Source of the DNA: Pseudomonadota bacterium
GTDB lineage: Bacteria > Pseudomonadota > Gammaproteobacteria > Burkholderiales > Thiobacillaceae
Length of the DNA stretch: 64,000 bases
Direction: 5' to 3'
Assembly (NCBI GenBank): GCA_021820845.1
Contig: JAKADC010000001.1
Coordinates: 124,001-188,000 of the forward strand
The notes below the pieces were generated by a model. It ran no database searches and had not been told where the DNA came from. It was given only the letters and a program-made list of their open reading frames with translations. Positions 10,703 through 26,044 of the stretch are shown here, one piece after another (within the stretch, counting starts at the first letter, position 1; each line of letters opens with the position of its first letter). The translations under genes and the position numbers were made by a program.

Positions 10703-10743
10703 CCTTCAGGATGGGGCGTGGGGTTAGCCCCATCCTGAAGGTT
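10701..10743. repeat. Perfect 17-bp inverted repeat abutting the first CRISPR repeat
   Basis: The left arm (10701-10717, AACCTTCAGGATGGGGC) is the exact reverse complement of the right arm (10727-10743), with a 9-base loop. The right arm ends three bases inside CRISPR repeat 1. It lies where the leader should be, between queA and the array. It could be a regulatory hairpin, a protein site used in spacer integration, or an attenuator for array transcription. There is no T-run after it on the plus strand. Confidence 0.85.
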
Positions 10744-11040: not shown

Positions 11041-11044
11041 TCCG

Positions 11045-11099
11045 AAGCCACAAACCCGCTCAGAGCTTGTCTCTGAGCGGGTTTGTGGCTTCTTTTTTT
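11045..11099 (+). terminator. Intrinsic terminator after the CRISPR array
   Basis: A perfect 21-base stem (11045-11065 with 11071-11091) closes a 5-base loop and is followed by CTTTTTTTG. The T-tract is on the plus side only, supporting plus-strand transcription of the array. It starts four bases after the last repeat. Confidence 0.9.
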
Positions 11100-11103
11100 G
11101 CGT

Positions 11104-11436
11104 TCAGAACAGCAAAATCTGCTGGGCGTTGACGGTTTTTTCCTGAAACAGCGGCAGGCCGACCAGGAGTTTCATGCTGGCGAACTGTTTTTCGGTGACG
11201 GTCAATACGCGCACGGAACCTGCGGGCGGCAGGTTGTCCACCAAGCGTTTCATGTGCTTGGTTTCCGCGTCGGTGCCGTTGAGAATCCGCCCGTAAACAG
11301 AAAACTGGATCATGTCATAACCGTCGTTGAGCAGAAAACGGCGGAATACGGTGTAGGCGCGGCGTTCAGCCTTGGTGACGACGGGCAAGTCGAAGAACAC
11401 CAGAATCCGCATGAATCGCCTCGTCTCAACACTCAT
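11104..11436 (-). CDS. cas2: CRISPR-associated endoribonuclease/integration subunit Cas2
   Basis: 110 residues from the first start; an ATG at residue 9 (MRILVFFDLPV) is the more family-like beginning and would give 102. The ferredoxin-like fold is visible: ILVFFDLP strand with the conserved aspartate, then RRAYTVFRRFLLNDGYDMIQFSVYGRI. Cas2 forms the structural core of the Cas1-Cas2 complex that inserts new spacers. It overlaps the cas1 stop, so it is the last gene of cas9-cas1-cas2. Confidence 0.95.
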   Translation of the reverse strand: MSVETRRFMRILVFFDLPVVTKAERRAYTVFRRFLLNDGYDMIQFSVYGRILNGTDAETKHMKRLVDNLPPAGSVRVLTVTEKQFASMKLLVGLPLFQEKTVNAQQILLF

Positions 11437-12334
11437 GCTGGTGTAATGCTAGTCCGATGAGTTGCGGCAGTTCCAGCAGTATCTCGCTCCCGCCTTCGTA
11501 TAACCGGGCCAGGGATTCAACCGCCTGTTCGATCGAGGTCAGCGCAGACATGGTGCCGCGCGGCATGGCCATGTCCACATTCAGCAGGCTGACCAGCGGC
11601 ACTTTGTCGGCAGGCAGGAGGTCATCGACGCCGTGGCCGAGGTAGTGTTGGATGACATGTAGGTCAACCAGCGGGCGATAGGGTTCGATCAGGTCGTCTG
11701 CCAAATTGAATGCGTTTTGTTCGCTGGCGTGGAACAGCCCCAAGGCAGGCAGAAATCCATGCGCCACCAGCCCGCGCGCGATGGCGGCGCGGAAGACGGC
11801 GTAGCCGTAATCCAGCGCGGCGTTGACCCAGCGCGGCTGTCCACGATGAAAGTCGTTGCCGAACAGCGCGCGGAAATACACCGCACTGGCCTGCGATTCG
11901 AGATTGTCCGGATCACCCGAGCGCACCCGCCGCGCCAGCGATTCCAGTTTGTCCACACCGGGCTTGTCCGCAAGTTTCAGGCAGTCAGCCTGATTCTGAA
12001 TCTTGGCCTGGATGATGGTCTGCCAGGCGCGCTTGGAGGCTGGCCGCCCCAGCCCGAGTTGCAGGCGCAACATGCGCGTGGCGCGGCTATGTGGCAGAAA
12101 TGGCAAGAACACGCCGTTGGGATGGTGTGTTGGCCCGGTAGAAAAAAGGCCGATGCCGTATTCGCCGCAGGCCGACAGCACCGAATGCGTCAGCGTAATT
12201 TCGTGATGATTGAGGACGATGATAGCGATGTCCTCGAAGGGTATGCGCGCGTCCTGTTCCTGTTCGATCAGCAGGGTGAACTTGTCCCGCCGCAGGGTGG
12301 CCGGGCGGGAAATCATCACGCTACGCCAAGTCAC
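11426..12334 (-). CDS. cas1: CRISPR-associated integrase Cas1 (type II)
   Basis: 302 residues. The N-terminal beta domain precedes a helical catalytic domain with E146 in NLESQASAVYF, H202 in GLFHASEQNAFN and the acidic LADDLIEPYRP cluster (D213/D214/E217). These are the metal-binding residues of Cas1. It inserts protospacers at the leader end together with Cas2. The start lies 14 bases inside the end of cas9, implying coupled translation. No cas4 or csn2 is present, which fits subtype II-C. Confidence 0.96.
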   Translation of the reverse strand: MTWRSVMISRPATLRRDKFTLLIEQEQDARIPFEDIAIIVLNHHEITLTHSVLSACGEYGIGLFSTGPTHHPNGVFLPFLPHSRATRMLRLQLGLGRPASKRAWQTIIQAKIQNQADCLKLADKPGVDKLESLARRVRSGDPDNLESQASAVYFRALFGNDFHRGQPRWVNAALDYGYAVFRAAIARGLVAHGFLPALGLFHASEQNAFNLADDLIEPYRPLVDLHVIQHYLGHGVDDLLPADKVPLVSLLNVDMAMPRGTMSALTSIEQAVESLARLYEGGSEILLELPQLIGLALHQHEC

Positions 12335-15300: not shown

Positions 15301-15599
15301 CAGGGCGCTACGGGAGTAATGCGCTGGTTGTGGAAAAGCTGAGCATCTGAGATCAAGCCTTCACGCTTGAGCAAGCGTGCCACTTTGGTTTGCCGCCAGG
15401 CGCGGCGATACAAACGACGGCGCATCAAACGCGCAGATCGACGCGCAAGATTGAGCGATTCACCTTCCTTGGAGGTTTCGGCTTTATCGAACGCCCTGAC
15501 CCCGAGCGCCACAATCCGGTTGGGGGCGAGAACCGCCCAGCCAACCGAAGCGATGCCGATGTCGAAACCGAATGTCAGATTCTGGGTGTTGCTTTCCAC
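12321..15599 (-). CDS. cas9: Cas9 endonuclease, compact subtype II-C
   Basis: 1092 residues. RuvC-I FGFDIGIASVGWA (D13); arginine-rich bridge helix around 53-75; RuvC-II SVHIEMARDLS (E535); HNH AEVDHALPYSRSFDDS with H617 and N640; RuvC-III RHHALDAVVVAV (H757, D760); and a C-terminal PAM-interacting region. All catalytic residues are present, so it should cut both strands. The size and the 23-residue H-to-N spacing match Neisseria meningitidis Cas9 (1082 residues). It starts with GTG at 15599 behind AAGGAGG. The tracrRNA diverges from the same intergenic region. The PAM cannot be read from the protein. Confidence 0.98.
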   Translation of the reverse strand: MESNTQNLTFGFDIGIASVGWAVLAPNRIVALGVRAFDKAETSKEGESLNLARRSARLMRRRLYRRAWRQTKVARLLKREGLISDAQLFHNQRITPVAPWQLRVDGLDRLLTPEEWARVIYHLCKHRGFHWISRAEEKKVGEDTKGEGGKVKQGLAATGRMMHEKGYRTAAEMVLAEFPDAQRNKHGDYGKALSRALLAEEIAILFQRQRALGNLHTSEAFQTAILGSGDRKSGLFWLQKPALSGDNLLKMLGRCTFEKTEYRAPKASFTAERHVWLTRLNNLRIVVDGETRPLNDQERHIALPLPYNQAGDLTHKQLRAALVKTGVLDESFRFAKFPYAQSADGKAKDPESAVLVKLPAWQELHKLLKDKGLETEWQGMAGAALAGNPELLDSMAWVLSVYKDDVEVERELGKLNPPGGQAMIDALGEVHFDKFSNLSLKALRQIVPHMETGLRYDEACESAGYHHSQLFKLGEGDERYLPPFYSGRDKNGRMVFNDDMDIPRNPVVLRALNQARKVMNALIREYGSPASVHIEMARDLSRPMDERSKIKKLQDEYRDKNDKDKAAFAAEYGIPAKSREFEKFQLYREQQGKCAYSLEPLDLNRVLHDIGYAEVDHALPYSRSFDDSKNNKVLVLARENRNKGNATPYEYLDGANDSERWRQFGAWVEGNKTYRLAKRTRLLRKNFGTEEAKDFSERNLNDTRYICKFFKNYIERYLKLADDGESKRCVVLSGQLTAFLRARWGLMKIRSDSDRHHALDAVVVAVCSHNMVKRLSDYSRRKELEAVRDGFVDLATGEIVSHAMHRQLKEHFPDPWPDFRDELEARLFKDDPAQLRIAVEGLGTYSQNALDALRPLFVSRAVQRRRGGALHQDTIRSARLLNKGQSHVSVQLQKLKTSDLDNIVGASDPRNSTLIELLRMRLDEHNGDGKKAFAEPIYKPSAPGKKAPQIRTVKLASTQKSGMHVRGGVADLGDMLHVAVYRHARKHLIEPVYAANKEIRVASSCIPDDAEFLFYLTKNDYVRVTLGDICHEGYFVMYESDGRMTLRAHDQPKSDKEYFRKGVTSATQIEKYHVDILGNLYSAPPEKRRDLA

Positions 15600-15624: not shown

Positions 15625-15723
15625 AGTTGTAGCTTTCCGGGGTGAGAGCCGTTGCTGCAATAAGGTTATCCTGAAAAGGATGAACCGAATCCAAAAGACC
15701 CGAGGTTCGCCCCGGGTCTTTTT
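15625..15723 (+). ncRNA. tracrRNA of the type II-C system
   Basis: Positions 15627-15648 are an exact 22-base complement of the 3' two thirds of the CRISPR repeat. After a short bulge, TTGCTGCAAT (15651-15660) complements the repeat's 5' GTTGTAGC with wobbles. Next come AAGG and a hairpin ATCCTGAAAAGGAT, as in the Neisseria tracrRNA (which has GTCTGAAAAGAT in this place), then a terminator hairpin. It is transcribed away from cas9. It pairs with pre-crRNA for RNase III processing and loading into Cas9. The 5' end is an estimate from the promoter. Confidence 0.93.
15695..15723 (+). terminator. tracrRNA intrinsic terminator
   Basis: AAGACCCG (15695-15702) pairs with CGGGTCTT (15713-15720), continuing into a T-run to 15723. 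It forms the 3' end of the tracrRNA. Confidence 0.88.
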
Positions 15724-15772
15724 CATTTTGTTCGGTTGAATATTGCTGAGCATAGGGATCGAACTGGTCGCC

Positions 15773-15802
15773 TTGCCATGTTTGGCGCGGTTCGGCGATA
15801 AT
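15773..15802 (+). promoter_or_regulatory. Candidate tRNA-Leu promoter
   Basis: TTGCCA (15773-15778) and GATAAT (15797-15802) with an 18-base spacer lie 43 bases before the tRNA 5' end. Both boxes are close to the sigma-70 consensus, as expected for a tRNA gene. Confidence 0.6.
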
Positions 15803-15845
15803 GCGCGGCTTCTGTCGCCGCGCCGCATTCGCGTCCGGCACCCTT

Positions 15846-15932
15846 GCCGGGATGGCGGAATCGGTAGACGCAGCGGATTCAAAATCCGCCGCCCGTGAGG
15901 GTGTGGGGGTTCGAGTCCCCCTCCCGGCACCA
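15846..15932 (+). tRNA. tRNA-Leu (anticodon CAA)
   Basis: 87 bases including the encoded CCA. The acceptor stem GCCGGGA/TCCCGGC, the anticodon loop TTCAAAA (anticodon CAA) on a GCGGA/TCCGC stem, the long class II variable arm, and the T-arm GGGGG-TTCGAGT-CCCCC are all intact. Its 3' end is the attachment site of the integrated element that follows, and the gene stays functional because the element restores the 3' end. Confidence 0.97.
15910..15926 (+). other. attL core (in tRNA-Leu 3' end)
   Basis: 17 bases, identical to 24920-24936. Downstream the tRNA copy reads GCACCAG after an extra G that is missing in the distal copy. Confidence 0.85.
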
Positions 15933-16035
15933 GCGCAGTATCCGAGCAGTTCCGATAACTTCCGCAATACCCTGTATTTACAAGGCTTTATGTAGGTCGC
16001 TCGTCCGTAGGCGTCCTATAATATCCGCTAGAAGC

Positions 16036-16096
16036 TACCCCCAACCGGGGATAGAAGCGGGGGTATCTGCCCCCGGGCACTCTGGAGGATACCCCC
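16036..16096 (+). repeat. Integrase arm-type site candidates, left end
   Basis: Three copies of the motif TACCCCC or its complement lie between the tRNA and int: TACCCCC at 16036-16042, GGGGGTAT at 16059-16066 and ATACCCCC at 16089-16096, the last overlapping the int ribosome-site spacer and abutting its ATG. The segment 16047-16066 matches 17 of 20 bases at the far end (24847-24866). Repeats of this type upstream of P4-family integrase genes act as arm sites and could also give int autoregulation. Confidence 0.6.
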
Positions 16097-17296
16097 ATGT
16101 CTTTGACTGACACTTTCCTTCGCACCGCGAAGCCTGCGGAGAGGGCAATCCGCAAGTTCGACGGCAGCGGCCTATACGTCGAAATCACCCCTTCTGGCGG
16201 GAAGCTCTGGCGACTCAAGTATCGCTTTGAAGGGAAGGAAAAACTGCTGGCCCTCGGGCGCTACCCCGAGGTGAGCCTGAAGGATGCGCGAGAGCGCCGC
16301 GACGAAGCGCGCAAGCTGCTCGCGAATGACATTGACCCTGCGGCGAATAAGAAGGCGGCGAGGGCTGCGAAGCTCGCCCAAGCGGAAAACAGCTTTGAGG
16401 CTGTAGCCCGCGCGTGGTACGCGAAAGCCTACGCAGATAAGGCAGAAAGCACCCGGCTGAAAACGATCACGCGGCTGGAGCAGGACGTTTTCCCCTACAT
16501 CGGCGGAATGCCGGTTGCTTCGATTACGGCGGGCGATGTGCGCGGTGTAATCGAGCGTATCGAGAAACGCAGCGCGCTCGATATCGCAAAGCGCGTCTTC
16601 AACTACATCGGCCGCACCCTGCGCTACGCCGACAGCCTTGGGATGGTGGAGCGTGACGTATCGGCGTCAATCGACTTGGCGCTGCTGCTCCCGAACCGCA
16701 AGACAAAGCACCACGCCGCGCTGACTGATCCTGCGGCTGTCGGAGGGCTTATGCGCGCCATCGACGGCTTCACCGGCAGCTATGTGACGGTGCGCGCTTT
16801 GAAACTCGCCGCGCTGACCTTCGTTCGCCCTGGCGAACTGCGGCATGCCGAATGGTCCGAGTTCGACCTCGACGGCGCGACCTGGACTGTCCCTGCCGGG
16901 AAAATGAAAATGAAGATCGAGCATATTGTGCCGCTGTCCGCGCAGGCTGTCGCGGCTCTGCGCGAATTGCGCGCCGTGACGGGGACGGGGAGCAATGTGC
17001 GGTACGTTTTTCCTTCGGAGCGCGGCGGCTCGCGCCCCATGAGCGAGAACACGTTGAACGCCGCGCTGCGCCGCATGGGCTTCACCCAGGAAGAGATGAC
17101 CTCCCACGGCTTCCGGGCGATGGCTCGGACGATTCTGGATGAAGTGCTCGGCTTTCGCCCCGACTTCATCGAGCATCAGTTGGCACACGCTGTGAAGGAC
17201 GCGAATGACCGAGCGTATAACCGCACCAAGTTTCTCCCCGAGCGCCGCGCGATGATGCAGGCGTGGGCTGACTATCTCGACGGGTTGAAGGCATGA
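16097..17296 (+). CDS. int: P4-type tyrosine recombinase (site-specific integrase)
   Basis: 399 residues. An N-terminal arm-binding domain (DUF4102 type, ~1-85), a central SAM-like domain (~98-190) and the catalytic domain with R244 (VRPGELR), H337/R340 (HGFRAMAR), H364 (QLAH) and the nucleophile Y374 (AYNRTKF). All active-site residues are present. The gene follows a GGAGG ribosome site and sits 164 bases from the tRNA-Leu it would use. It overlaps the next gene by 4 bases. It would integrate and, with AlpA-type help, excise the element. Confidence 0.96.
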   Translation: MSLTDTFLRTAKPAERAIRKFDGSGLYVEITPSGGKLWRLKYRFEGKEKLLALGRYPEVSLKDARERRDEARKLLANDIDPAANKKAARAAKLAQAENSFEAVARAWYAKAYADKAESTRLKTITRLEQDVFPYIGGMPVASITAGDVRGVIERIEKRSALDIAKRVFNYIGRTLRYADSLGMVERDVSASIDLALLLPNRKTKHHAALTDPAAVGGLMRAIDGFTGSYVTVRALKLAALTFVRPGELRHAEWSEFDLDGATWTVPAGKMKMKIEHIVPLSAQAVAALRELRAVTGTGSNVRYVFPSERGGSRPMSENTLNAALRRMGFTQEEMTSHGFRAMARTILDEVLGFRPDFIEHQLAHAVKDANDRAYNRTKFLPERRAMMQAWADYLDGLKA

Positions 17297-17880
17297 GGCC
17301 GAAAAAGACTACCGGGCGCGGCTTCGGAGTCGGCGCGCTTGTTGAGGAGCTAGCGCCGTTTGAGGATTTTGAGGAAATCGGCGCTGAGTTTTCTGTTGAT
17401 GCGGAAGGACTGCGCCGCGCAGTTGCGGAGTATATGGCCCGCCGAGATGCGCCCCTCGCAGTGATGGCCGAAGTGAAGCAAACGCTCGAAGCATTGAAGA
17501 ATCGTGGCGCGAAACCGGAGCAGTTAGATGATGTCGACCCCATCACAGAAGGCCTGCTGATCGCTGGACGGAAAGATTTAGCGCGGCTTCCTCTCGAAAG
17601 CTGGACGGCTGACGAACTCGCCGACGCCGCGACGAAGGCATTGAGGCTCGTCACTACCAAGGGCGGTAGGCCGAAAAACGAGGCTGCTCGCATGTTCGTT
17701 GACGAGTTGTTGGGCCTTTGGCTCGCGGCTGGAAATGCCTTTCCGCCTAATCCGTCAGCTTCAAGCGAGCTATCGCAGAAGCCCGATTTCCATCAATTCG
17801 TTCAGCGCTCTGCGGAACTCGCAGGCTGCGAGGCTACGCACCATCAAATAAGCGAAGCCATCAAGGCTAGAACCCAATAA
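17293..17880 (+). CDS. Unknown protein co-translated with the integrase
   Basis: 195 residues, no family recognised. It starts MRPKKTTGRGFG, is acidic in the first 60 residues, and has a helix-rich middle (AVAEYMARRDAPLAVMAEVKQTLEAL). The KGGRPKNEAARMFVDELLGLWLAAG segment resembles a conserved stretch seen near integrases in other proteobacterial islands, but I cannot name it. An ATGA overlap with int implies a linked role, possibly regulation of integration or excision. Confidence 0.7.
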   Translation: MRPKKTTGRGFGVGALVEELAPFEDFEEIGAEFSVDAEGLRRAVAEYMARRDAPLAVMAEVKQTLEALKNRGAKPEQLDDVDPITEGLLIAGRKDLARLPLESWTADELADAATKALRLVTTKGGRPKNEAARMFVDELLGLWLAAGNAFPPNPSASSELSQKPDFHQFVQRSAELAGCEATHHQISEAIKARTQ

Positions 17881-17894
17881 ATACGCCCATCTTC

Positions 17895-17914
17895 GCGGGG
17901 TGGTTTTCCTACTA
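17895..17914 (+). repeat. 20-bp exact repeat, copy 1 (upstream of alpA)
   Basis: GCGGGGTGGTTTTCCTACTA occurs here and, unchanged, at 24425-24444, 6.5 kb away at the other end of the element. This copy is ~80 bases before the alpA start. A shared operator or activator site is the simplest reading. Confidence 0.85.
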
Positions 17915-17992
17915 GTTCGCCCCGTCTCGCGTCTCTAAATTTCCTCCTTAACGGCTCGGGCAATTCCGGGCAGAACCGATAAGGAGCGAATT

Positions 17993-18196
17993 ATGAATAG
18001 CAAAGCAGAAACCTTCATGCGCCGCGAGCAAGTCGAAGCGGCCACTGGCCTTGCCCGTTCGACAATTTATGAGCTGATGGACAAAGGCGATTTTCCGAAG
18101 TCGGTAAAAATCGGAGCGCGTGCTGTCGGCTGGCGCGGTTCGGAAATCCAAGAGTGGATTTACAACAAGATCAAACAATCGCGCGGGGCGGCGTGA
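17993..18196 (+). CDS. alpA: AlpA family transcriptional regulator (excisionase-like)
   Basis: 67 residues. It has the whole-protein MerR-like wing/helix pattern of AlpA: FMRREQVEAATGLARSTIYELM, then FPKSVKIGARAVGWRGSEIQEWI. A strong AAGGAGCG ribosome site precedes it. AlpA-type proteins in P4-like elements act as activators or excisionase-like switches. It begins the probable replication operon and is followed by the ATPase gene 88 bases on. Confidence 0.92.
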   Translation: MNSKAETFMRREQVEAATGLARSTIYELMDKGDFPKSVKIGARAVGWRGSEIQEWIYNKIKQSRGAA

Positions 18197-18284
18197 TGGA
18201 CGCCCAAAAAAATGGGCCGCGCTGGAGGACGCGGCCAATAGCATTCAAGCTCCTTCTACTTTACTCCACGCGAGGAGGAGCGGC

Positions 18285-19868
18285 ATGAACGGCATTCACG
18301 TTCTTGAACATCCGTTGGGGAGATTCGACCCTACCAGACGCAGCAGCAGAACGCTGAACGCGCTGGAAGCGGCGCTCAAGTATGCCGCGCGCGGCTGGTA
18401 TGTTTACGCGCCTGATGCCACCACGGACGAGGCGCGCATTCGCGAACACTACAAAAATCTGGAGGCGAACACAGTCAAGATCAACGTGGAACTGTCCGGC
18501 CTTGTCGCGCTTGAATTTGAGGAGGGAGTTGACCTGGCCCTCCTTGGAATACCGGCTGAAATCGAGACATTGCGCACCACGTCGCCGATGCTGCTCTTCA
18601 GCGCGCCCACAACAGTGAAGCTGCCGACTGGGAAAGTGACTTCCAACGCGGCGCTGCTCAAGGAAGCCTATCTGCCGCCAACCTGCGGGAGCACGTGGGT
18701 CAATGGGTTTGATGAATTGGCCCCCGTGCCTGATCCGATTAAATTGATCGAGGCGCGTGTTCAGTACAAGAAGGAAGAAGCCCGCATCACGAATGAATGG
18801 CCGGAGCCGCTGGACTTGGCAGCGCTGTCGCAGCGTGCCCCGGAGCCGCCAAAGTTCATTATTGATGATTGGCTGCCCTGCGGCTATGCGACGTTGTTTG
18901 CCGGGCACGGCGGCGTCGGCAAGTCGGGCATCGCACTCCATCTCGCTGTATGCATCGCTTCTGGGCTTCCCTTCTTCGGCTCTCCTGTGGCGCAGCGCCG
19001 TGTGCTCTATCTGTCGTGTGAGGATAGGGAAAACGTCCTACATTGGCGGCTCGCTCGCATCTGCTCATTCCTGCATATCGAACTTGCGAGCTTGGTCGGG
19101 CGGCTGGATGTGCTCGATTTGGTCGGCCAGCCGACTGTCTTGTGGGAGCGCGACCCCTACACCGGAGCTTCCTTCACAGGAGCCCACGGCAATCTGAACG
19201 CGCGCATCAAGGCAAGCGGATCAGAAGTGGTTGTTGTTGATGGTATCGCTGACACCTTCGGCGGCAATGAAAACGCCCGCACTGAAGTTAAGGCATTCGT
19301 GAATTCATTGCTGGCGTTGGTGCCGGTTGATGCCGGGGCTGTTCTGCTGGTAGGGCATATCTCGAAACCGAGCGCATCCAACGGAGTATCCGCTGAGGGC
19401 TACTCTGGCTCGACGGGTTGGCACAATTCCGTGCGGGCGCGCTGGTATCTCTACCCGGACAAGAACACCGACACGCTGCGGCTTGAGCTTCAAAAGTCGA
19501 ACCTGGGGCCGAGCGACCGCGCAATGGAATTCCGCTGGGACGCCGAGCGCCACCTGTTTGTTGGCTCGGCAATAACTGAAGTCGAAGGCCAGCAGCGGGA
19601 CGAGGAAGAGCGCGCCGGGATTCTCGCCGCCATGAAGGGTTGCCCGGTGCCAATCCCCACCGCCAGCAGCGGCATCAGCACGACGTTCCATGTCTTGAGC
19701 ATCCGGCCTGAATTTCCATCGACTTTGACGGACAGCCGGGATGGCAAGAAGCGGTTCATGAAACATATCCAGACCCTTCACCAAATGGGAGCGATTGCCG
19801 AGGGAGCGATCACGACGACCAGCCGCAACAGGAGGGGCGTCTGGGAGGTGCAGGATGAGAAATTCTGA
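18285..19868 (+). CDS. RepA/primase-like AAA (RecA-fold) replication ATPase
   Basis: 527 residues from the ATG at 18285, which follows GAGGAGGAG; the frame is open upstream but only over alpA. Residues 25-85 look like a shortened prim-pol domain (ALKYAARGWYVYAPDATTD, then LSGLVALEFE). The centre is a RecA-like ATPase (AAA_25 type) with Walker A GHGGVGKS (207-214), SCED (244-247) and Walker B VVVVDG (315-320), then LLVGHISKP. A winged-helix-like C-terminus follows. Such proteins open or load helicase at plasmid and satellite origins. The iteron cluster lies just after the stop, which supports an initiator role. The usual acidic primase residues are not evident. Confidence 0.82.
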   Translation: MNGIHVLEHPLGRFDPTRRSSRTLNALEAALKYAARGWYVYAPDATTDEARIREHYKNLEANTVKINVELSGLVALEFEEGVDLALLGIPAEIETLRTTSPMLLFSAPTTVKLPTGKVTSNAALLKEAYLPPTCGSTWVNGFDELAPVPDPIKLIEARVQYKKEEARITNEWPEPLDLAALSQRAPEPPKFIIDDWLPCGYATLFAGHGGVGKSGIALHLAVCIASGLPFFGSPVAQRRVLYLSCEDRENVLHWRLARICSFLHIELASLVGRLDVLDLVGQPTVLWERDPYTGASFTGAHGNLNARIKASGSEVVVVDGIADTFGGNENARTEVKAFVNSLLALVPVDAGAVLLVGHISKPSASNGVSAEGYSGSTGWHNSVRARWYLYPDKNTDTLRLELQKSNLGPSDRAMEFRWDAERHLFVGSAITEVEGQQRDEEERAGILAAMKGCPVPIPTASSGISTTFHVLSIRPEFPSTLTDSRDGKKRFMKHIQTLHQMGAIAEGAITTTSRNRRGVWEVQDEKF

Positions 19869-19870
19869 GC

Positions 19871-20259
19871 CGCGTGAGTTATCGCCGCGAAATCCTTAGA
19901 GCCGCAGGGGAACGCGTACGTTCTCGCCGCGAAATCCTTAGAGCAGCGAGGGGAACGCGTCAGTTATCGCCGCAGCCGCCGACGCGAACTGACGCGAGGA
20001 GAAGAGGCGAATTCGCTGAATCCCTTGCCGCGCGTGTGTTTCGGGGGGCGCGTGGGTTATCGAGAAGGCCGCGTGGGTTCTGTTACGCGCCTAAATACGT
20101 CCTCCCTTTGCGGGGAACGCGTAGGTTCCCGCTAAGGGTATATAGGGAACGAACGAACGTACGCCATCCCCTCGCGGCTCTAAAACCCTTACCGGGCGTG
20201 GGTTTCTGGGATTTTTGGGATTGGTGGGCGCGTAGGTTCCCGAAAACGAGAACTCACGC
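19871..20259 (+). repeat. Iteron cluster, candidate replication origin of the element
   Basis: The 512 bases between the ATPase stop and the next gene hold about eleven copies of a 14-base motif close to CGCGTNNGTTNNCG. Direct copies start at 19871, 19913, 19956, 20031, 20049, 20070, 20118, 20195 (first base changed) and 20229; inverted copies are 19983-19996 and 20247-20259 (truncated). The first three lie in a 42-43-base tandem unit. Clusters like this beside an initiator gene are typical of iteron origins (P4 ori/crr, plasmid oriV). A 151-codon frame across the region is repeat-derived and not credible. Confidence 0.75.
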
Positions 20260-20380
20260 AGGCTCCCCCGGCGGCCTACGACAAGATTTTCAACGGGGTA
20301 TGGGCCGACCTACATACCCACGAGTTTAAACAGTGCCGCGGCCCCATTCCGGCCTGCGGCGATAGATCGAGGAGTCTGAG

Positions 20381-21001
20381 ATGGACCGACCTTTATATTG
20401 GCCCCTTCGCCGCCCCCCGGAGGCGACCTTTGAGGGCATCCACGTCGCGCTCGGCGGCGACTGGGCGAAATACGCCGACGCAACGCCCGAAGGCTTCGCG
20501 CCTATCGGCGTCGTGCGCCTACCCGAGAAGAAGCGCGCCGCGCTCTTCGTCCAGGGCGATAGATTCGTCACGGCGCGGCGCGGCGACGTTGTCGAGATGA
20601 CCGGACTCGATGCCCTCTTCACCCGCTTGGCGATTCGGAAGGCTGTCGAGAAGGCAGAGAGCTACGCCGAAGGGTGCCGCTGGAAGAAAACGAAGGCAAT
20701 GACCGGCCTCGCCAACGAGGCGCGCCTGATCGAGCGAAACCAGAAGCGCCTCCAAGCGGAAGCACCGCCGATCTACGCCGAGCAGTTCGACCGGGCGCGC
20801 GAATTGAGCAGGAAGTTTCCCACGCCGAGCCGCACGGCGGAACTCGCGGCAATCATCGCTGAGATGAACATCTCCACGCTCCTCATGTTCCTCGGCCACA
20901 TTGGGCTTTTCGGCGAGCGTATGGAGACGGCCGTCAGCGACCGCCTCATCGCCATCCGCAACGAACTTCTCGCATCAATCGACAAAGGAGAGCAGCAATG
21001 A
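20381..21001 (+). CDS. Unknown element protein (helical C-terminus)
   Basis: 206 residues, not recognised. The N-terminal ~75 residues look like a small beta-rich domain (GVVRLPEKKRAALFVQGDRFV). The rest is predominantly helical, with many charged residues (ARLIERNQKRLQAEAP, MFLGHIGLFGERMET). It is the first gene of a tight three-gene run (4-base overlap with the next) between the origin and the capsid gene. No membrane span or signal peptide is visible. The position would suit replication control or helper interference, but that is only context. Confidence 0.7.
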   Translation: MDRPLYWPLRRPPEATFEGIHVALGGDWAKYADATPEGFAPIGVVRLPEKKRAALFVQGDRFVTARRGDVVEMTGLDALFTRLAIRKAVEKAESYAEGCRWKKTKAMTGLANEARLIERNQKRLQAEAPPIYAEQFDRARELSRKFPTPSRTAELAAIIAEMNISTLLMFLGHIGLFGERMETAVSDRLIAIRNELLASIDKGEQQ

Positions 21002-21264
21002 CTATCGCCACCTACACACTGACCGAGGCGGAAATCATGGAGGCAATCGAAAAAATGGACGAAGACACGCTGCTGGAAATCGGCATGGTTGGACGCATCG
21101 CGACGATGAGCAACGAGGAGATTGGCGCCTTCATCACCGACCTCGAAAACAACAACGCCTGCGGAACGCCGCGAATCGTTGAGGCCGTGCGCAATCGCCT
21201 GTACACGCTCCGCGCCGAGTTGGTTGCGCAGTTGCCCGACGAACTGAAGCCGAAGGTGCATTGA
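20998..21264 (+). CDS. Unknown small acidic protein
   Basis: 88 residues, strongly acidic and helical (EAEIMEAIEKMDEDTLLEIG, then NRLYTLRAELVAQLPDEL). It overlaps the previous gene by 4 bases (ATGA). No family recognised; the small size and acidity are compatible with a protein-protein modulator. Confidence 0.65.
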   Translation: MTIATYTLTEAEIMEAIEKMDEDTLLEIGMVGRIATMSNEEIGAFITDLENNNACGTPRIVEAVRNRLYTLRAELVAQLPDELKPKVH

Positions 21265-21266
21265 CC

Positions 21267-21491
21267 ATGAACGAGCTCTTCAAGAATCACGCGGCATCCA
21301 GCAAGGCGCTCGCCAAGCACATGATCGACGGCCTGACGGTCGAAGGCGCGGAGGAGTTGACGCGGCGACTCGCGGACGGATGGGCGCTCGCGCTGACGAC
21401 AACACTGACCACGCCGCCGACGATCTTCTGCACGATATCGAAGCCGGGACACCCCTTGGAGGAGGTTTTCCGCGTCACTGTAGCGCAGTAG
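21267..21491 (+). CDS. Unknown small protein
   Basis: 74 residues from the ATG at 21267; a TTG two codons earlier overlaps the previous stop and is an alternative start. Helical N-terminus (MNELFKNHAASSKALAKHMI) and a beta-like C-terminus (PPTIFCTISKPGHPLEEVFR). No family recognised. Last gene of the three-gene run; 111 bases precede the capsid gene. Confidence 0.6.
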   Translation: MNELFKNHAASSKALAKHMIDGLTVEGAEELTRRLADGWALALTTTLTTPPTIFCTISKPGHPLEEVFRVTVAQ

Positions 21492-21602
21492 CGACCCGAT
21501 ACGACTGGCGTAGGATAAAGAGGCCGCCATCGCGCGCGGCACCTTACCCATACAGGCAAGAGCCACCAAACGGCTCGGCCTCAAACGACAGGAGTAGTAA
21601 TC

Positions 21603-22814
21603 ATGAACATCAACATCAACTCACCGCAGGCATTGCGCGAACATCGCGCAGACCTCGTTCAAAAGGCCCGCACTTTCCTCGACGCGAACAAGGCCAATTG
21701 GGGCGCCACGCACGACGAGCAGTACAACAAGTTTCTCGCCGAAATCGACGAAACCGACAAGCACCTGAAGGCCATCGACGACAACCACGCCGAGATGCTC
21801 GGGCAGCTCAACTCGGGAAAGGTACTGCGCACCAAGGCAGACTTTGAGCGCCATTTCAGCACCCGCAACGACTTCGGCGGCGACTTCGATATTGGCGATT
21901 ATCTGCGCGGCATCGCCAACATGCGCACCACGCCGAGCGTCAAGAACGCAATGAGCGTCGGCACCGACTCGGCTGGTGGCTACGCTGTCCCCGGCGTTCT
22001 GATGCCTGGCATTCTCGCGGCGATGGTCCCGGTATCGAGCCTCCTCACCGCAGGCGCAGGTATCGTGCCGCTGGACGAGGGCGCGAAGACGTACACGACA
22101 GCCGCAGTCGATTCGATTCCGACCGCCGCATGGCGGAGCGAAGCGGGCACACTCGCGACGAGTGACCCCACCTTCCGTGGCGTGGTTGCTACGCCGCGCA
22201 GCCTGTCGTTTCAGTTCAAGGTGTCGCGTGAACTGCTCGCTGACGCTGTTGGGCTGACCGAGGCGCTGAACCTCGCGATTGCGCAAGCGTTCGCGAAGGA
22301 ACTCGACCGCGCTGGCCTTCGTGGCTCCGGCACCGCACCCGAGCCGCGCGGCCTCCTCAACACGACCGGCATTCAGGCGGTCGACAACGGCACGAACGGC
22401 GCATCGCCCACGGATTACGCCAACTTCTTCTCAGCGGTCACGGCCATCCTCGCGGCCAACGGCCCGATGCCCACTGCTGCGATTATGTCGCCGCGCTCGC
22501 TCGTGAAGTTTGGTGGCCTTGCGGACTCGACGGGTCAGCCGCTGCGCGTACCCGACATGCTCACGCCGCTCAAGCAGGTCGCCACGAGCCAAATTCCGAA
22601 CGACCTCACTGTGGGAACTTCCACGGACTGCTCGGAACTTTACATCGGTGAGTTCTCGCGCATGTACTTCGCGATGCGTGAGGCGGTGAGCATTCAGCTT
22701 CTCAACGAACTGTACGCAGGCACTGGTGAGATCGGATTCGCCTGCCATGTTCGCGCCGATGTGGTCGTCACCTATCCTGCTGCGTTCGCCGTTGTGACGG
22801 GCGTGAAGGCGTAA
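21603..22814 (+). CDS. HK97-fold phage major capsid protein
   Basis: 403 residues. An N-terminal ~100-residue helical delta-like region (coiled-coil rich, HDEQYNKFLAEIDETDKHL) is followed by the mature domain from ~115 (GTDSAGGYAVPGVLMPGIL...). Core HK97 features include RSLSFQFKVSRELLADA, the AQAFAKELDRAGLRGSG segment and a C-terminal VVVTYPAAFAVVTG strand. In HK97 phages the delta region is cut by a prohead protease; no protease gene is in the element, so maturation would need a helper enzyme. Preceded by a strong AGGAG site. It lies alone among structural genes. Confidence 0.93.
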   Translation: MNININSPQALREHRADLVQKARTFLDANKANWGATHDEQYNKFLAEIDETDKHLKAIDDNHAEMLGQLNSGKVLRTKADFERHFSTRNDFGGDFDIGDYLRGIANMRTTPSVKNAMSVGTDSAGGYAVPGVLMPGILAAMVPVSSLLTAGAGIVPLDEGAKTYTTAAVDSIPTAAWRSEAGTLATSDPTFRGVVATPRSLSFQFKVSRELLADAVGLTEALNLAIAQAFAKELDRAGLRGSGTAPEPRGLLNTTGIQAVDNGTNGASPTDYANFFSAVTAILAANGPMPTAAIMSPRSLVKFGGLADSTGQPLRVPDMLTPLKQVATSQIPNDLTVGTSTDCSELYIGEFSRMYFAMREAVSIQLLNELYAGTGEIGFACHVRADVVVTYPAAFAVVTGVKA

Positions 22815-22815
22815 T

Positions 22816-22878
22816 CGGGGAGGGGGGCGCGAAAAGTTTAGCTGTTTGGGCTTCTTGCCTCCCGTGCCCCGTTTTTTT
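22816..22878 (+). terminator. Possible terminator after the capsid gene
   Basis: CGGGG (22816-22820) can pair with CCCCG (22867-22871), flanked inwards by further G-rich and C-rich arms, and seven T follow (22872-22878). The loop is long, so strength is uncertain. Confidence 0.4.
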
Positions 22879-22907
22879 ATTGGGAACTCTGATTTTGGAA
22901 GGCAATC

Positions 22908-23351
22908 ATGAAACGCAATCCATCCAACACCATCACCGAGCAAGCCAAGACGTTCAGCGACGTTCGCCGCAAGCTGGTCCCGCCCAGCACCTTGTCGAAA
23001 GCCGCTCTGCCTTTCTGGGAAAGCATCGCCGCGACTCGCGCACCTGGGGAATGGGCGCCCGCCGACATTCCCATTGCGGCGCAACTCGCTGAAGATTACG
23101 CGCTCCTCGCTTCGCTGCGGGAGCGGCTCGACGCTGAGGGCTGGTTCGCTAAAGGGAAGCTGCGGCCTGAGGCGGCGCTGCTCGATACCGTATCGCGCCG
23201 GGCATTCAGCGCGAGCCGTCTACTCCAACTCCACCCCCGAGGCCGCACCGGGCAACAATCCCGGTCAGTGGTCGCCAAGCGCCGCGCGGCTCAAAACGCA
23301 GCGATGTCGCAGGAGGAGTTTGAGGACGATTACCTCATTCCGACGCATTGA
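22908..23351 (+). CDS. P27-like phage terminase small subunit
   Basis: 147 residues. It follows the P27-family pattern: LSKAALPFWESIAATRAPGEW near the start, then PADIPIAAQLAEDYALLASL, a DAEGWFAKGKLRPEAALLDTVSRRA stretch and an ASRLLQLHPRGRTG-like motif. Small terminases recognise the packaging site and direct the large subunit to it. A satellite-specific small terminase can redirect a helper's packaging motor, as SaPI and PICI TerS proteins do. No large subunit is encoded here. A GGAAGG ribosome site precedes it. Confidence 0.82.
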   Translation: MKRNPSNTITEQAKTFSDVRRKLVPPSTLSKAALPFWESIAATRAPGEWAPADIPIAAQLAEDYALLASLRERLDAEGWFAKGKLRPEAALLDTVSRRAFSASRLLQLHPRGRTGQQSRSVVAKRRAAQNAAMSQEEFEDDYLIPTH

Positions 23352-23358
23352 TGGGCCG

Positions 23359-23871
23359 CTAGACAAGCCCGTTAGCTAGCGAGTACGCGGCCCATCCGAC
23401 GAAGCCCATTTGCCCTAGTACGAGGAATGCTTGGGCCTGCGTGAGCTTTACGACTAGCCGCCCAGGCGCTGCGAAATCGCCTGCTAGGATTTTCTTATTG
23501 GTCCACCGCAGGAAAATCCGCGCAGGCCAGAAGATCGATCTTTCAATTTCGTTCACTACCCGAGAAAAATCCAGAGTCACACCAGCAGGGGCGGCGCTTT
23601 CAGCCTCTTTGCTTGCCGCCTCACTCCCGGAAACGATAGCGCCCAGATACCGCTGTAGGACGTGCAAAGAAACAGCGATCAGAAAAATCTTTATAGATAG
23701 CCCGATACACGCTGCGGGCAGCAATGTAGTGACTGTGTCGATCTTTGATAAGAGCAAGCCGAGAATCGCCGCGAAACTGCCAATGAGCCAACTTGAGAAA
23801 GTTGTAAGGCTCTCAGTCGTGCGCCCTGCCATAATTGTTAACAGGCGCCCTGCCAATATTGATTCGTGCAT
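23359..23871 (-). CDS. Unknown membrane protein paired with a nuclease-like gene
   Basis: 170 residues from the ATG at 23871; the frame is open to 24006 but only over the upstream gene. Three hydrophobic segments (~22-42, 50-72, 146-167) flank a polar middle region (~80-140). Not recognised. It runs opposite to the phage genes and 20 bases behind the nuclease-like gene, so the two form one operon. It could be a membrane effector or anchor of an accessory system. Confidence 0.65.
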   Translation of the reverse strand: MHESILAGRLLTIMAGRTTESLTTFSSWLIGSFAAILGLLLSKIDTVTTLLPAACIGLSIKIFLIAVSLHVLQRYLGAIVSGSEAASKEAESAAPAGVTLDFSRVVNEIERSIFWPARIFLRWTNKKILAGDFAAPGRLVVKLTQAQAFLVLGQMGFVGWAAYSLANGLV

Positions 23872-23891
23872 ATCCGCACCGCTGTCCAACT

Positions 23892-24365
23892 TCAACCCTG
23901 CGCAGCGAGTCTTGAGAAATCGTGAGCGACGTAGCGCAAAAATCGCTCTTTGACATACTCGATTTTCTCGCCTGTCTTCTTGTTCGTGCGCGTGCCGTTG
24001 AACCAAATGGCGCGCAGGCCGGCATTCTTTCCAGTTTTGTTTTGCACCGCTTCGGTGATGAACTCCTCGGAGGTCATGAGCCAGATCGTATCGAGCCGCT
24101 CTGAATAGAACACAAACCAGTAGTCTGCCCGGCTTTCATGGAGGATGGCCGCAAAGAGCGCGGCATCGCCAGAGATTACTGTTTTCGAGCGTGCCTTAAT
24201 CTGTACGAGCGCAATCGTTCCATCCTTGCGGCGCACGATTGCATCAACAGCATGATCGTCAACGAGGGGAACATAAACGTCCATCCCTTCTTTCAGCATG
24301 AGGCCGATGATCCAATATTCGATTCGCTTTCCGAATCCTGCGGAGTGGCGGAACGGTGTGGTCAT
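23892..24365 (-). CDS. PD-(D/E)XK-like nuclease (restriction-endonuclease fold), cargo gene
   Basis: 157 residues from the ATG at 24365 (MTTPFRHSAGFGKRIEYWI); an upstream ATG at 24419 is possible. E15 in the first helix, D41 in AVDAIVRRKDGT and Q55-x-K57 in ALVQIKARSK form the motif I/II/III pattern of PD-(D/E)XK enzymes. VQIKARSK is typical of Holliday-junction-resolvase-like and restriction-like nucleases. It sits with a membrane-protein gene at the attR side, the usual position for defence cargo in satellites. Substrate and role are unknown. Confidence 0.7.
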   Translation of the reverse strand: MTTPFRHSAGFGKRIEYWIIGLMLKEGMDVYVPLVDDHAVDAIVRRKDGTIALVQIKARSKTVISGDAALFAAILHESRADYWFVFYSERLDTIWLMTSEEFITEAVQNKTGKNAGLRAIWFNGTRTNKKTGEKIEYVKERFLRYVAHDFSRLAAQG

Positions 24366-24424
24366 CTGGTTTTTCCCGAAGGCCAAGCAGGTTGCTAATG
24401 TAACGCAATCCAGGCGCATTTTCA

Positions 24425-24444
24425 GCGGGGTGGTTTTCCTACTA
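24425..24444 (+). repeat. 20-bp exact repeat, copy 2
   Basis: Same 20 bases as 17895-17914. It lies between the start of the nuclease gene (minus) and the 84-residue gene (plus, ATG 24533), so it could control either. The flanks also agree: TTC-N- precedes both copies. Confidence 0.85.
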
Positions 24445-24532
24445 TCAGCAACTCCTCATCCTGCACAGACTAACGCTGTGGAAATCATCCACAGCCGATG
24501 CCGCGCGGCTTCATCGCGGCGGGAGATCAAAC

Positions 24533-24787
24533 ATGGAAGTGCGCATTGTGAAAACCGACGATGGAAAATTCTTTATTGGCGACATGGCTGGCCCGTTCGA
24601 TACCGAAGAGGAGGTTGTCCGTTACTGCGGTGTCGATGCCTCGGCGATGAAGATGTACGCCGAAGCAGGCATTGAGGTCAGCGAGGAGTTGGCCCGCGCT
24701 ATGTATCGCAAGGAGGTATTGACCGAGAAGATCGCCGCGCTGATCACGGAGCTACGCTTCGCAGAACAGCGCCTCGCCATACTCTAA
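24533..24787 (+). CDS. Unknown small acidic protein at the element's right end
   Basis: 84 residues, begins MEVRIVKTDDGKFFIGDMAG, then a helical C-terminus (RKEVLTEKIAALITELRFAE). Preceded by GGGAG at a good distance and followed by a strong terminator, so it looks like a genuine single-gene unit. No family recognised. The 20-base repeat shared with the alpA promoter region lies ~90 bases upstream, suggesting common control. Confidence 0.68.
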   Translation: MEVRIVKTDDGKFFIGDMAGPFDTEEEVVRYCGVDASAMKMYAEAGIEVSEELARAMYRKEVLTEKIAALITELRFAEQRLAIL

Positions 24788-24795
24788 TAGCAACC

Positions 24796-24820
24796 AACCC
24801 GGCCTCGCGCCGGGTTTTTT
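24796..24820 (+). terminator. Intrinsic terminator
   Basis: AACCCGGC (24796-24803) pairs with GCCGGGTT (24809-24816) over a 5-base loop, then T to 24820. It closes the rightmost gene of the element. Confidence 0.9.
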
Positions 24821-24846
24821 ACTTCAGCGGCGCGACCAAAGCGGAT

Positions 24847-24866
24847 AGGGGTAGAAACGGGGGTAT
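24847..24866 (+). repeat. Integrase arm-type site candidate, right end
   Basis: AGGGGTAGAAACGGGGGTAT matches 17 of 20 bases of 16047-16066 in the same orientation, 54 bases inside attR. It pairs with the left-end cluster as expected for integrase arm sites. Confidence 0.6.
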
Positions 24867-24919
24867 TAAACAAGATAGCCGCCATGAATCGCACTTAATT
24901 ACTGGCTAGGAGCGATATT

Positions 24920-24936
24920 TTCGAGTCCCCCTCCCG
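24920..24936 (+). other. attR core
   Basis: Exact copy of the 17-base tRNA-Leu 3' segment at 15910-15926. The following bases read CACCAG where the tRNA has GCACCAG, a one-base loss. No other tRNA parts remain on this side. Confidence 0.82.
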
Positions 24937-24994
24937 CACCAGTCAGAGCCCACGCACGGGCGGCGCGATCACCTCATTCGAGAAGCGCTTTTCA

Positions 24995-26044
24995 TCAGGG
25001 ATTTGGATAGGCAGCCAGGGTGTCTGCCACGAACTGCGCGATCAGCCCGTGTACCGCCTTGGTCGGGTGAATCCCGTCCCAGAAGAAATAATCGTCAGGC
25101 AGCTGACAGGTATACGGCGGCGTTTTCGGGGTGGCGCAAGGATCCGTGACGTCGACCAGGCTGAAGCTTGCCGGGGATTGGATGATCGCCGTCATCCGGC
25201 CGGCGATATCCAGTTGGACGATCTGGATGGCGGGCAGCCCCCCGAGGGCCGACGGTGCCAGGACGTTCTGGGCCAGCCCCTGGTTGAAGCCGTCCACCAG
25301 GCTGCCGGCCACGGTCATCGCGCCCGGCCCCAGGGCCCTCACCGCGGGGACGAGGTCGATCCTCGGCGCATTCCAGACCAGGAACTTCCTCGCGCCGGCG
25401 CTGTAAAGCGTCTGGATGCTCTGGGCGATGCCGTTCAGGGCGCCGGCCACGATGGCATTCGCCGCGGACGCCGCGCGGGTCGGGCTGCCCGTCATCAGGT
25501 AGGTGGTGAGATACGCGACCAGGGCGTCGCGCAGGTCGTTGCTGCCGATCTCGATGACGTACAGCGCATCCGGCGCCGCCGTCTGGCCGCTGTGTGCCAG
25601 GAAAAACTGCACCTGCTGCGGCAGGTTGACCCGGTCCGGATAGGCGGTGGCGCGCGCCCCGCCCACCGCATAGTTGCGCGCCTTGCTGGCGTCGCTCTGG
25701 AACGCCGGGGCGACGTCCGCCTCCAGGCCCCGGTCCTGGGCGAACTGCTCGATCCAGGTCGCACCGTTGCTGAAGTGGTGCCCGCCCCTTGCATAGGGCG
25801 CGCTCGGGACCAGGAACTCGTCGAGCGCGTCGTAGGGCGGCGTGTTCTGGCTGACGTTGCCCTGGAGCGCGAGACCGGCGACCGGGTGGGCCAGAAGGGT
25901 GAAGGCGTTGCCGGGGTCGGACAGGCTGGTGCCGAACACCACGATGCCGCTGAAGGTCATCTGGGCGAGCGCCAGCCCGGGAAGCCCGAAGGCGATTGCG
26001 GCCACGAGAAGCCGCATCCATCTTTGCATCCGTTCACGGATCAT
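24995..26044 (-). CDS. Secreted GDSL/SGNH-family esterase or lipase
   Basis: 349 residues from the ATG at 26044 (ribosome site in a G-run just upstream); the open frame to 26329 is low-complexity and arginine-rich. A signal peptide ends near ALAQ (residue ~28). SGNH blocks are visible: I FGTSLSDPGN (nucleophile serine, GTS in place of GDS), III IGSNDLRD, V FFWDGIHPT (catalytic Asp and His). It resembles secreted phospholipase/thermolabile haemolysin-like esterases. The first chromosomal gene beyond attR. Confidence 0.85.
   Translation of the reverse strand: MIRERMQRWMRLLVAAIAFGLPGLALAQMTFSGIVVFGTSLSDPGNAFTLLAHPVAGLALQGNVSQNTPPYDALDEFLVPSAPYARGGHHFSNGATWIEQFAQDRGLEADVAPAFQSDASKARNYAVGGARATAYPDRVNLPQQVQFFLAHSGQTAAPDALYVIEIGSNDLRDALVAYLTTYLMTGSPTRAASAANAIVAGALNGIAQSIQTLYSAGARKFLVWNAPRIDLVPAVRALGPGAMTVAGSLVDGFNQGLAQNVLAPSALGGLPAIQIVQLDIAGRMTAIIQSPASFSLVDVTDPCATPKTPPYTCQLPDDYFFWDGIHPTKAVHGLIAQFVADTLAAYPNP

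What the first reader, a model, noticed from the sequence alone, without database searches (positions are those of the whole stretch)
15910..24936. A minimal capsid-encoding phage satellite in tRNA-Leu
Between exact att repeats lie a P4-type integrase, AlpA, a RepA/primase-like ATPase with iterons, an HK97 capsid protein and a P27-like small terminase. There is no portal, protease, large terminase, tail or lysis gene. PICI and P4 satellites usually steal a helper capsid, while the known capsid-forming PICIs carry a fuller head module. An element with only capsid protein plus TerS, about 9 kb long, would be a distinct strategy: make its own shell protein and redirect packaging, but borrow everything else. 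I cannot say whether this family is already described.
Basis: partly seen in the sequence, partly recalled or inferred. Interest (0 to 1): 0.85.

Follow-up and report, generated by a model that had tools for sequence, protein, structure and literature searches.

The report
Capsid-carrying phage satellite in tRNA-Leu
This 9-kb stretch is a small phage parasite that carries its own shell-protein gene and a DNA-selection gene but not the rest of a phage; it looks like a real, conserved element of a known kind (a Gram-negative phage-inducible island) rather than a broken prophage or a new strategy.

Summary
Between a tRNA-Leu and a tRNA-end repeat (window 15910-24942) lie an inward tyrosine integrase, AlpA, a RepA-like ATPase followed by nine iterons, an HK97-fold major capsid protein (MCP) and an HK97-type small terminase (TerS). 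No portal, protease, large terminase, tail or lysis gene was recognised. The "random deletion" alternative fails: the MCP sits in a well supported clade (100/99) of 32 rows, 31 of them satellites by gene content; 13 of 17 elements tested gave a candidate att pair, and these measure 8.8-10.3 kb; MCP codons are under purifying selection. The strategy, however, is in print: 21 of 29 reference Gram-negative PICIs carry an MCP gene, some PICIs carry terS, and SaPIbov5 Ccm shows an MCP homologue re-sizing helper heads. I file it as a new member of the Gram-negative PICIs. Best mechanism: the MCP builds all or part of a small head on the helper's portal, TerS picks satellite DNA, and the helper supplies protease, TerL and tail. 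Every functional step is inferred. Side finds: in-frame protease-MCP fusions, lone tape-measure genes, and two relatives that split a prophage's terL gene.

The parts
15846..15932 (+). tRNA-Leu (caa), intact; its 3' end is the left att (15910-15933)
   Evidence: ARAGORN; Rfam RF00005; repeat
24920..24942 (+). attR: tRNA-Leu 3' fragment with one G missing in the acceptor stem
16097..17296 (+). tyrosine integrase, 399 aa, inward-facing
   Evidence: PF13356/PF22022/PF00589; phrog_1 8e-64
17293..17880 (+). ORF 195 aa, unknown, overlaps int stop
   Evidence: no Pfam hit, PHROGs 0.18 at best; weak coding score
17895..17914 (+). 20-bp exact repeat upstream of alpA (second copy 24425-24444), possible operator
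   Evidence: D9; not found in the other family loci
17993..18196 (+). AlpA regulator/excisionase, 67 aa
   Evidence: PF05930 8e-23
18285..19868 (+). RepA-like AAA_25 ATPase (replication protein), 527 aa
   Evidence: PF13481 6e-36; phrog_906 DNA polymerase/primase 1e-24, ATPase part
19871..20238 (+). putative origin: nine CGCGTNNGTT iterons (eight direct, one inverted)
   Evidence: repeats D1/D2
20381..21001 (+). ORF 206 aa, unknown
   Evidence: coding score 51; no confident family
20998..21264 (+). ORF 88 aa, unknown, overlaps previous stop
   Evidence: coding score; no confident family
21267..21491 (+). ORF 74 aa, unknown
   Evidence: coding score; no confident PHROG hit (scanned from 21261)
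21603..22814 (+). HK97-fold major capsid protein, 403 aa, with N-terminal delta-like helices
   Evidence: model pLDDT 87; PDB matches HK97/D3
22908..23351 (+). small terminase subunit (TerS), HK97 gp1-like, 147 aa
   Evidence: phrog_5601 5e-17; HK97 gp1 E 1e-5
23359..24006 (-). ORF 215 aa, unknown cargo candidate; not kept by the codon-usage caller
   Evidence: no family hit
23892..24419 (-). Mrr/PD-(D/E)XK-like nuclease, cargo candidate, 175 aa (157 aa from a later start)
   Evidence: PF04471 2e-4, 21.7 bits against a cut-off of 21; weak REase_II 0.006; start
24425..24444 (+). second copy of the 20-bp repeat, between the leftward genes and the right-end ORF
   Evidence: D9
24533..24787 (+). 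ORF 84 aa, unknown
   Evidence: coding score; PHROGs 0.017 at best

Best explanation
It is a Gram-negative phage-inducible chromosomal island (PICI) of a satellite-specific, capsid-carrying lineage. Proposed cycle: a helper phage of HK97-like type enters or is induced and AlpA switches the island on; Int and AlpA excise it at the tRNA-Leu att sites; the RepA-like ATPase fires replication from the iterons, giving concatemers; the MCP is made late and assembles, as all or part of the shell, a small head on the helper's portal, with its N-terminal delta-like segment as inner scaffold cut off by the helper protease; the island TerS brings helper TerL to the island's own packaging site; helper connectors and tail finish the particle. 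Shown: gene content, att sites, iterons, predicted fold, conservation, no recognised other head genes. Inferred: every step of the cycle. About 0.9 that it is a PICI-type satellite; about 0.6 that, being one, its MCP acts by making small heads.
For: Order int-alpA / variable / replication-ori / late as PMC10111431 section 20 gives for GN-PICIs. 33 related MCP loci collected (window, L002-L014, L036-L047, L099-L105); own portal beside the MCP only in L047, and in L043 a helper prophage's portal (profiles for 26 of the records; tblastn for all 33, several of them short fragments). Clade of 32 rows 100/99, 31 labelled satellites by gene content. Candidate att pairs in 13 of 17 elements tested, 8,818-10,275 bp apart, a narrow size as expected if head volume limits it. 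dN/dS 0.09-0.26 in four unsaturated pairs of this MCP. Delta-like helices 8-28 and 35-68 and an HK97 fold. TerS of HK97 type, and the same PHROG in a cf-PICI-like element with its own TerL (L077). L043 and L044 split the terL gene of a prophage, tying the lineage to an HK97-type helper. One base is missing from the attR tRNA fragment, likewise in 3 of the other 12 pairs (L006 one, L101 one, L102 two), which resembles the PICI attR damage of PMC10111431 section 19.
Against: No helper, induction, excised circle or particle was seen. In E. [quoted passage not shown] In L043 the satellite MCP is only 25% identical to that of the surrounding prophage, though Ccm and phi12 CP have low identity too (19.2% in the passage of PMC5052747 section 16). 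TerS is not conserved in the nearest relatives. PICIs were first defined partly by absence of structural genes (PMC6092414 section 3). The published attR damage is in Pro, Thr, SelC and some Ser and Ile2 tRNAs, whereas mine are Leu and Gly, and my Pro (L104) and Thr (L005) pairs are exact over the compared bases, so that sign is weak. The site-free chromosome was not found.
Confidence: 0.6

Rival explanations
1. PICI whose MCP is not used to build island heads: the island is packaged as concatemers in full-size helper heads, and the MCP gene is a captured late gene kept for interference, as a decoy, or neutrally.
For: EcCICFT073 is packaged in phage-sized lengths and its capsid gene is not needed (PMC6092414 passages, PMC10111431 section 3); late-gene capture from helpers is described (PMC10111431 section 20).
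Against: Purifying selection on the MCP, a satellite clade and the narrow 8.8-10.3 kb size are not what a neutral captured gene gives.
Confidence: 0.25
2. Ccm-like mosaic: the MCP occupies only some positions (such as pentamers) in a helper shell and so switches head size, and cannot form a shell alone. This is one form of the best explanation.
For: Ccm of SaPIbov5 does this and shares the fold and a low identity to helper CP (PMC8569155, PMC5052747 section 16).
Against: The Pfam capsid domain of the window MCP starts at residue 125, near the value for phi12 CP (127) and unlike Ccm (83; PMC5052747 section 16), so the short N-terminal part blamed for Ccm's incapacity is not evident here.
Confidence: 0.25
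3. Reduced or decaying capsid-forming PICI: an ancestor had MCP, protease, portal and terminase, and the window copy is a dead remnant.
For: L047, deep in the clade, has MCP-protease-portal; a cf-PICI-like element (L077) carries the same TerS family.
Against: The MCP-only state is shared by many lineages under purifying selection, and no broken head gene was recognised in the window. Reduction as history is possible; a dead remnant is unlikely.
Confidence: 0.06
4. Random deletion product of a full prophage.
For: Single phage head genes do occur in prophage remnants (general knowledge).
Against: int faces inward with AlpA; relatives are similar-sized elements at several tRNA genes. Best listed phage-collection MCP is 28.5% identical, best listed plasmid one 27.5%; in viral contigs the loci after the clade start at 28% (up to 41% over short segments). 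Phage MCPs fall in other clades.
Confidence: 0.02

Closest known systems
Gram-negative PICIs with a capsid gene (EcCICFT073, PmCI172; PMC6092414, PMC10111431)
   Same: int-alpA-replication-ori-late order, about 10 kb, an MCP gene and in some elements terS, few or no other phage structural genes
   Different: Here an MCP lineage in Comamonadaceae, Burkholderiaceae, Sphaerotilaceae, Nitrosomonadaceae and Lysobacteraceae hosts (tree labels), at or just under the small end of the published 10-20 kb range; an HK97-type TerS in the window; Rpp was not searched for
cos SaPIs with Ccm (SaPIbov5; PMC8569155, PMC5052747)
   Same: Satellite-encoded HK97-fold capsid homologue with delta-like N-terminal part; other head genes borrowed
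   Different: Those SaPIs lack TerS and are Gram-positive; Ccm has a shorter N-terminal part; no evidence here for pentamer-only use
Capsid-forming PICIs (cf-PICIs; as described in passages of PMC10690885, original paper not read)
   Same: Own MCP; TerS PHROG shared with the cf-PICI-like L077
   Different: cf-PICIs encode the full head and packaging set; the window has two of those genes
Helper-embedded PICIs (PMC10111431)
   Same: Relatives L043 and L044 sit inside a prophage terL gene
   Different: The window element is in tRNA-Leu, not in a prophage
Vibrio PLE11 chimeric-tail satellites (PMC12987554, passages read)
   Same: Satellite tape-measure genes, as in relatives L010, L013, L014, L102
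   Different: No tape-measure gene was recognised in the window element

Membership tests
Gram-negative PICI | integrase at one end, att pair in a specific site | tested here: met
Gram-negative PICI | AlpA-type regulator next to int | tested here: met
   PF05930 8e-23; one unknown ORF lies between
Gram-negative PICI | replication protein (primase) followed by origin | tested here: met
   AAA_25/RepA-like ATPase (ATPase part of primase PHROGs; a primase domain itself was not shown); nine iterons
Gram-negative PICI | int and most genes co-oriented, late zone last | tested here: met
   exception: two leftward ORFs at 23359-24419
Gram-negative PICI | no lysis, tail, portal or TerL genes | tested here: met
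   none among hits; portal and TerL profiles
Gram-negative PICI | helper-dependent induction, packaging and interference | not testable with these tools
   needs cultures
Gram-negative PICI | tRNA attR damage (PICI-only in the published set) | tested here: inconclusive
   one base missing here, in 4 of 13 pairs in all; but published for other tRNA species, and my Pro and Thr pairs are exact over the compared bases
cf-PICI | MCP, protease, portal, connectors, TerS, TerL, HNH all encoded | tested here: not met
   only MCP and TerS recognised
cos SaPI / Ccm | MCP homologue that re-sizes helper heads | not testable with these tools
   fold predicted; function not tested
P4-like satellite | Sid/Psu/Delta genes and P2-type helper (recalled) | not tested
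   no dedicated search; none among the hits
Prophage remnant | close relatives are full prophages | tested here: not met

The most novel reading that the evidence does not exclude
The lineage's MCP forms a complete, smaller shell by itself, so the island replaces the helper's shell protein outright while keeping the helper's portal, protease and motor. Scaling HK97 (39.7 kb, T=7, the T number recalled) by T^1.5 gives about 11 kb for T=3 and 17 kb for T=4, so the 8.8-10.3 kb elements predict a T=3 tailed head, smaller than the T=4 SaPI heads. Lone protease fusions and tape-measure genes in relatives would then be a mix-and-match series of virion-part replacement.
Probability: 0.25. Interest if true: 0.65.

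Novelty: new member of a known kind. Interest (0 to 1): 0.4.

Why it matters
It extends capsid-carrying PICIs to a satellite MCP clade in environmental Comamonadaceae, Nitrosomonadaceae, Lysobacteraceae and related hosts, and gives a natural series (MCP only, MCP+TerS, protease-MCP, MCP+tape measure, MCP+protease+portal) in which to ask which virion parts a parasite gains by making itself. It turns an open question, why so many Gram-negative PICIs keep a capsid gene that the E. coli model does not need, into a testable one.

Tried and rejected
Empty-site test: the right flank (24937-26000) matched in 6 of 60 genomes, fully only in the own genome and otherwise in pieces of about 30-100 bases, so no attB could be shown. 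No attR was found for L010 (tmRNA), and no good att pair for L007, L012 and L013. phrog_5601 in the genomes or records behind 13 loci was found in 1 of 13, in the cf-PICI-like element of the L004 genome, so TerS is not a fixed partner of this MCP. Single-sequence viral scans with the L014 and L010 MCPs gave only L014 and L013's contig again. PADLOC gave no confident defence gene for 10 cargo proteins, 5 of them from the window. The five candidate CRISPR spacers beside the element (10777-11070; the last may be trailer) had at most 15-base matches to held loci. No Rfam family besides the tRNA reached its gathering score in 15700-25100. The PDB sequence search gave two weak MCP hits. VIA-align was not available. 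Considered and dropped: P4 (no P4 gene among the hits; not searched for), encapsulin (delta-like helices and TerS context; the first encapsulin in the listed structures is rank 27), and deletion product (tree). A draft of this report overstated three things that were mended on checking: the attR damage as a PICI sign, the identity limit of outside MCPs, and the L043 satellite-helper comparison, which had not been run directly (now).
Full report
WHAT IS THERE. The element runs from the 3' end of tRNA-Leu (15846-15932) to a partial copy of it at 24920-24942. Left to right: integrase, an unknown ORF, AlpA, a RepA-like ATPase, nine iterons, three small unknown ORFs, an HK97-type MCP, a TerS, two leftward ORFs (one with a weak Mrr-type nuclease match) and a last small ORF. 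TerS looks full length: phrog_5601 5e-17 and 30% identity over 84% of it to HK97 gp1. The MCP model (25-sequence alignment, pLDDT 87, pTM 0.75) matches D3 and HK97 heads in the PDB (the first 15 matches have TM 0.39-0.48 by query length) and has two N-terminal helices (8-28, 35-68) where HK97 keeps its delta scaffold.

IS ANYTHING MISSING FROM VIEW? Portal (PF04860) and TerL (PF03354) profiles found nothing in the host genome assembly (24 contigs). So no resident HK97-type helper prophage is evident; other portal or terminase families were not searched. Distant MCP matches (24-33% identity) occur in relatives: 19 of 149 genomes with any match at E 0.001, own included.

RELATIVES. A genome scan with the window MCP gave 11 loci; viral contigs gave 2 and, with the family alignment, 43, of which 14 (L036-L047, L013, L014; 36-62% identity) belong with the window by similarity. 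Sampling of whole genomes at E 1e-40: the window's own order 2 of 399 including own, the other match having two internal stops; the order of the Lysobacter genome 7 of 398 including that genome, 8 MCPs. At most four candidates per genome were scored in both, so these are lower bounds. I collected 33 loci: the window, L002-L014, L036-L047, L099-L105. Several viral contigs are short fragments.

ARE THEY SATELLITES? In 26 records (own genome plus those behind L002-L014 and L036-L047) the portal profile hit five. TerL hit four of the same 26 (G151, G159, G169, G170). As positive controls, six viral records with distant MCPs gave 6 of 6 portals and 5 of 6 TerL. For L099-L105 only a local tblastn with reference portal and TerL proteins was done, with no hit. 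Of 17 elements tested for att pairs, 13 gave a candidate pair, at tRNA-Leu, Gly, Ser, Thr, Ala, Val and Pro genes; some pairs are only 14-20 bp (L004, L008, L009, L011, L101), and looked only in a limited stretch downstream. They are 8,818-10,275 bp apart. L010 lies beside a tmRNA but its attR was not found.

TREE. In a maximum-likelihood tree of 57 MCP core sequences the window groups with L002 (Polaromonas) and L003 (Rhodoferax), 100/98. A 32-row clade (100/99) holds 31 rows that I labelled satellites plus L047; L046 (partial) was not in the tree. The 24 rows labelled phage and the cf-PICI-like L077 fall outside. The labels rest on gene content. Of the 19 unannotated phage rows, a later tblastn found a portal in 10, only a protease in 6 (loci of 3-4 kb), and neither in 3 (L022, L029, L063). 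MCP dN/dS: L002-L003 0.11, L013-L014 0.09, L038-L039 0.15 (fused protease included), L043-L044 0.26; window-L002 about 0.11 and L007-L009 about 0.09, but with saturated dS.

KNOWN OR NEW? PMC10111431 (abstract, sections 3, 19, 20 and passages read) describes GN-PICIs with the same four-zone order and states that 21 of 29 reference elements carry an MCP gene. It also reports that tRNA attR damage occurs only in PICIs of its set, for Pro, Thr, SelC and some Ser and Ile2 tRNAs. PMC6092414 (section 3 and passages read) reports terS in some PICIs and small heads for PmCI172, which encodes an MCP homologue. PMC8569155 (abstract, introduction, first part of discussion) shows that Ccm, a capsid homologue, is cleaved, enters the shell and changes head size. 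In the listings of these searches I saw no paper on this particular MCP clade: (open-access library only; most listed papers were not opened).

MECHANISM. The anatomy fits a PICI whose late zone supplies a shell protein and a DNA selector. The strongest hint for small heads is the narrow 9-10 kb size together with selection on the MCP. The strongest counter-hint is EcCICFT073, where the capsid gene is not needed and DNA is phage-length. The window MCP has the long N-terminal part of a regular MCP (capsid domain from residue 125), unlike Ccm (from 83; PMC5052747 section 16), so an all-satellite shell is possible. In L043 satellite and prophage MCPs share 25% identity (E 2e-14). TerS varies among relatives: L004 has another TerS (phrog_12559 6e-6, phrog_83 3e-5), and L002, L004, L006, L043 and L044 encode short stretches like part of a phrog_641 TerS (35-58 residues; N-terminal part), which recall the TerS-mimicking Rpp proteins (PMC6739421 passages); L003 showed none. 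The packaging part seems swapped often while the MCP stays.

VARIANTS. (1) L007, L009, L036, L038 and L039 have a prohead-protease domain fused in frame to the MCP; with L037, where a stop separates the parts, they form one clade, 98/99. The protease call rests on PHROGs for L007, L009 and L037, and on similarity to L007 for L036, L038, L039 (L036 only 34%). (2) L010, L013, L014 and L102 have a tape-measure gene behind the MCP, 4 of 33 (PHROGs; L102 by similarity); seven of the 33 contigs end within 1.5 kb of the MCP, so more may be missed. The MCPs of L014 and of L013's contig are 90% identical, yet their tape measures fall best in different PHROGs (2854 vs 24). Only in L102 does a found att pair enclose the gene. 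Satellite tape measures are already reported (PMC12987554 passages). (3) The satellites L043 and L044 split the terL gene of an HK97-type prophage: in L043 N part 3875-4282 and C part 14008-15426; in L044 the matching N part is 3998-4288 (61% to L043) and the C part about 14033-15448. This is the helper-embedded arrangement of PMC10111431.

VERDICT. Real, conserved, functional-looking, and of a known kind. Interest is moderate.

Noticed in passing
window 10741-15599: A type II CRISPR-Cas locus (Cas9 12321-15599 minus, TIGR01865 6e-208; array of five repeats at 10741-11041) lies directly left of the tRNA-Leu; the ORFs at 11426-12316 and 11104-11412 have the sizes of cas1 and cas2 but were not scanned.
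   Followed up: partly
window 17895-17914 and 24425-24444: An exact 20-bp repeat upstream of alpA and near the start of the leftward genes; not found in the other family loci. Possible shared operator.
   Followed up: partly
L043 3875-15426; L044 3998-15448: Capsid-carrying satellites that split the terL gene of an HK97-type prophage.
   Followed up: partly
L007 9287-10999; L009 9314-11020; L036 6181-7989; L038 2227-3933; L039 5619-7322: Prohead protease fused in frame to the satellite MCP; L037 has the two parts separated by an in-frame stop.
   Followed up: partly
L010 11290-14868; L014 5759-9487; L013 11364-13778; L102 (reverse complement) 8806-10896: A lone tape-measure gene behind the satellite MCP; L013 and L014 have closely related MCPs but tape measures of different PHROG families.
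   Followed up: partly
L077 (G151:C33:28000-47000): A cf-PICI-like element (MCP, protease, portal, HNH, TerS, TerL) in the same Ramlibacter genome as the MCP-only element L004.
   Followed up: partly
L002, L004, L006, L043, L044: Short stretches downstream of the MCP resembling part of a phrog_641 TerS; possible Rpp-like packaging switches.
   Followed up: no
L102 and L103 (both G849): Two different elements of this MCP clade in one genome.
   Followed up: no
L047: A 7-kb viral contig with MCP-protease-portal followed by a primase, placed deep in the satellite MCP clade; possible intermediate between capsid-forming and MCP-only PICIs.
   Followed up: partly
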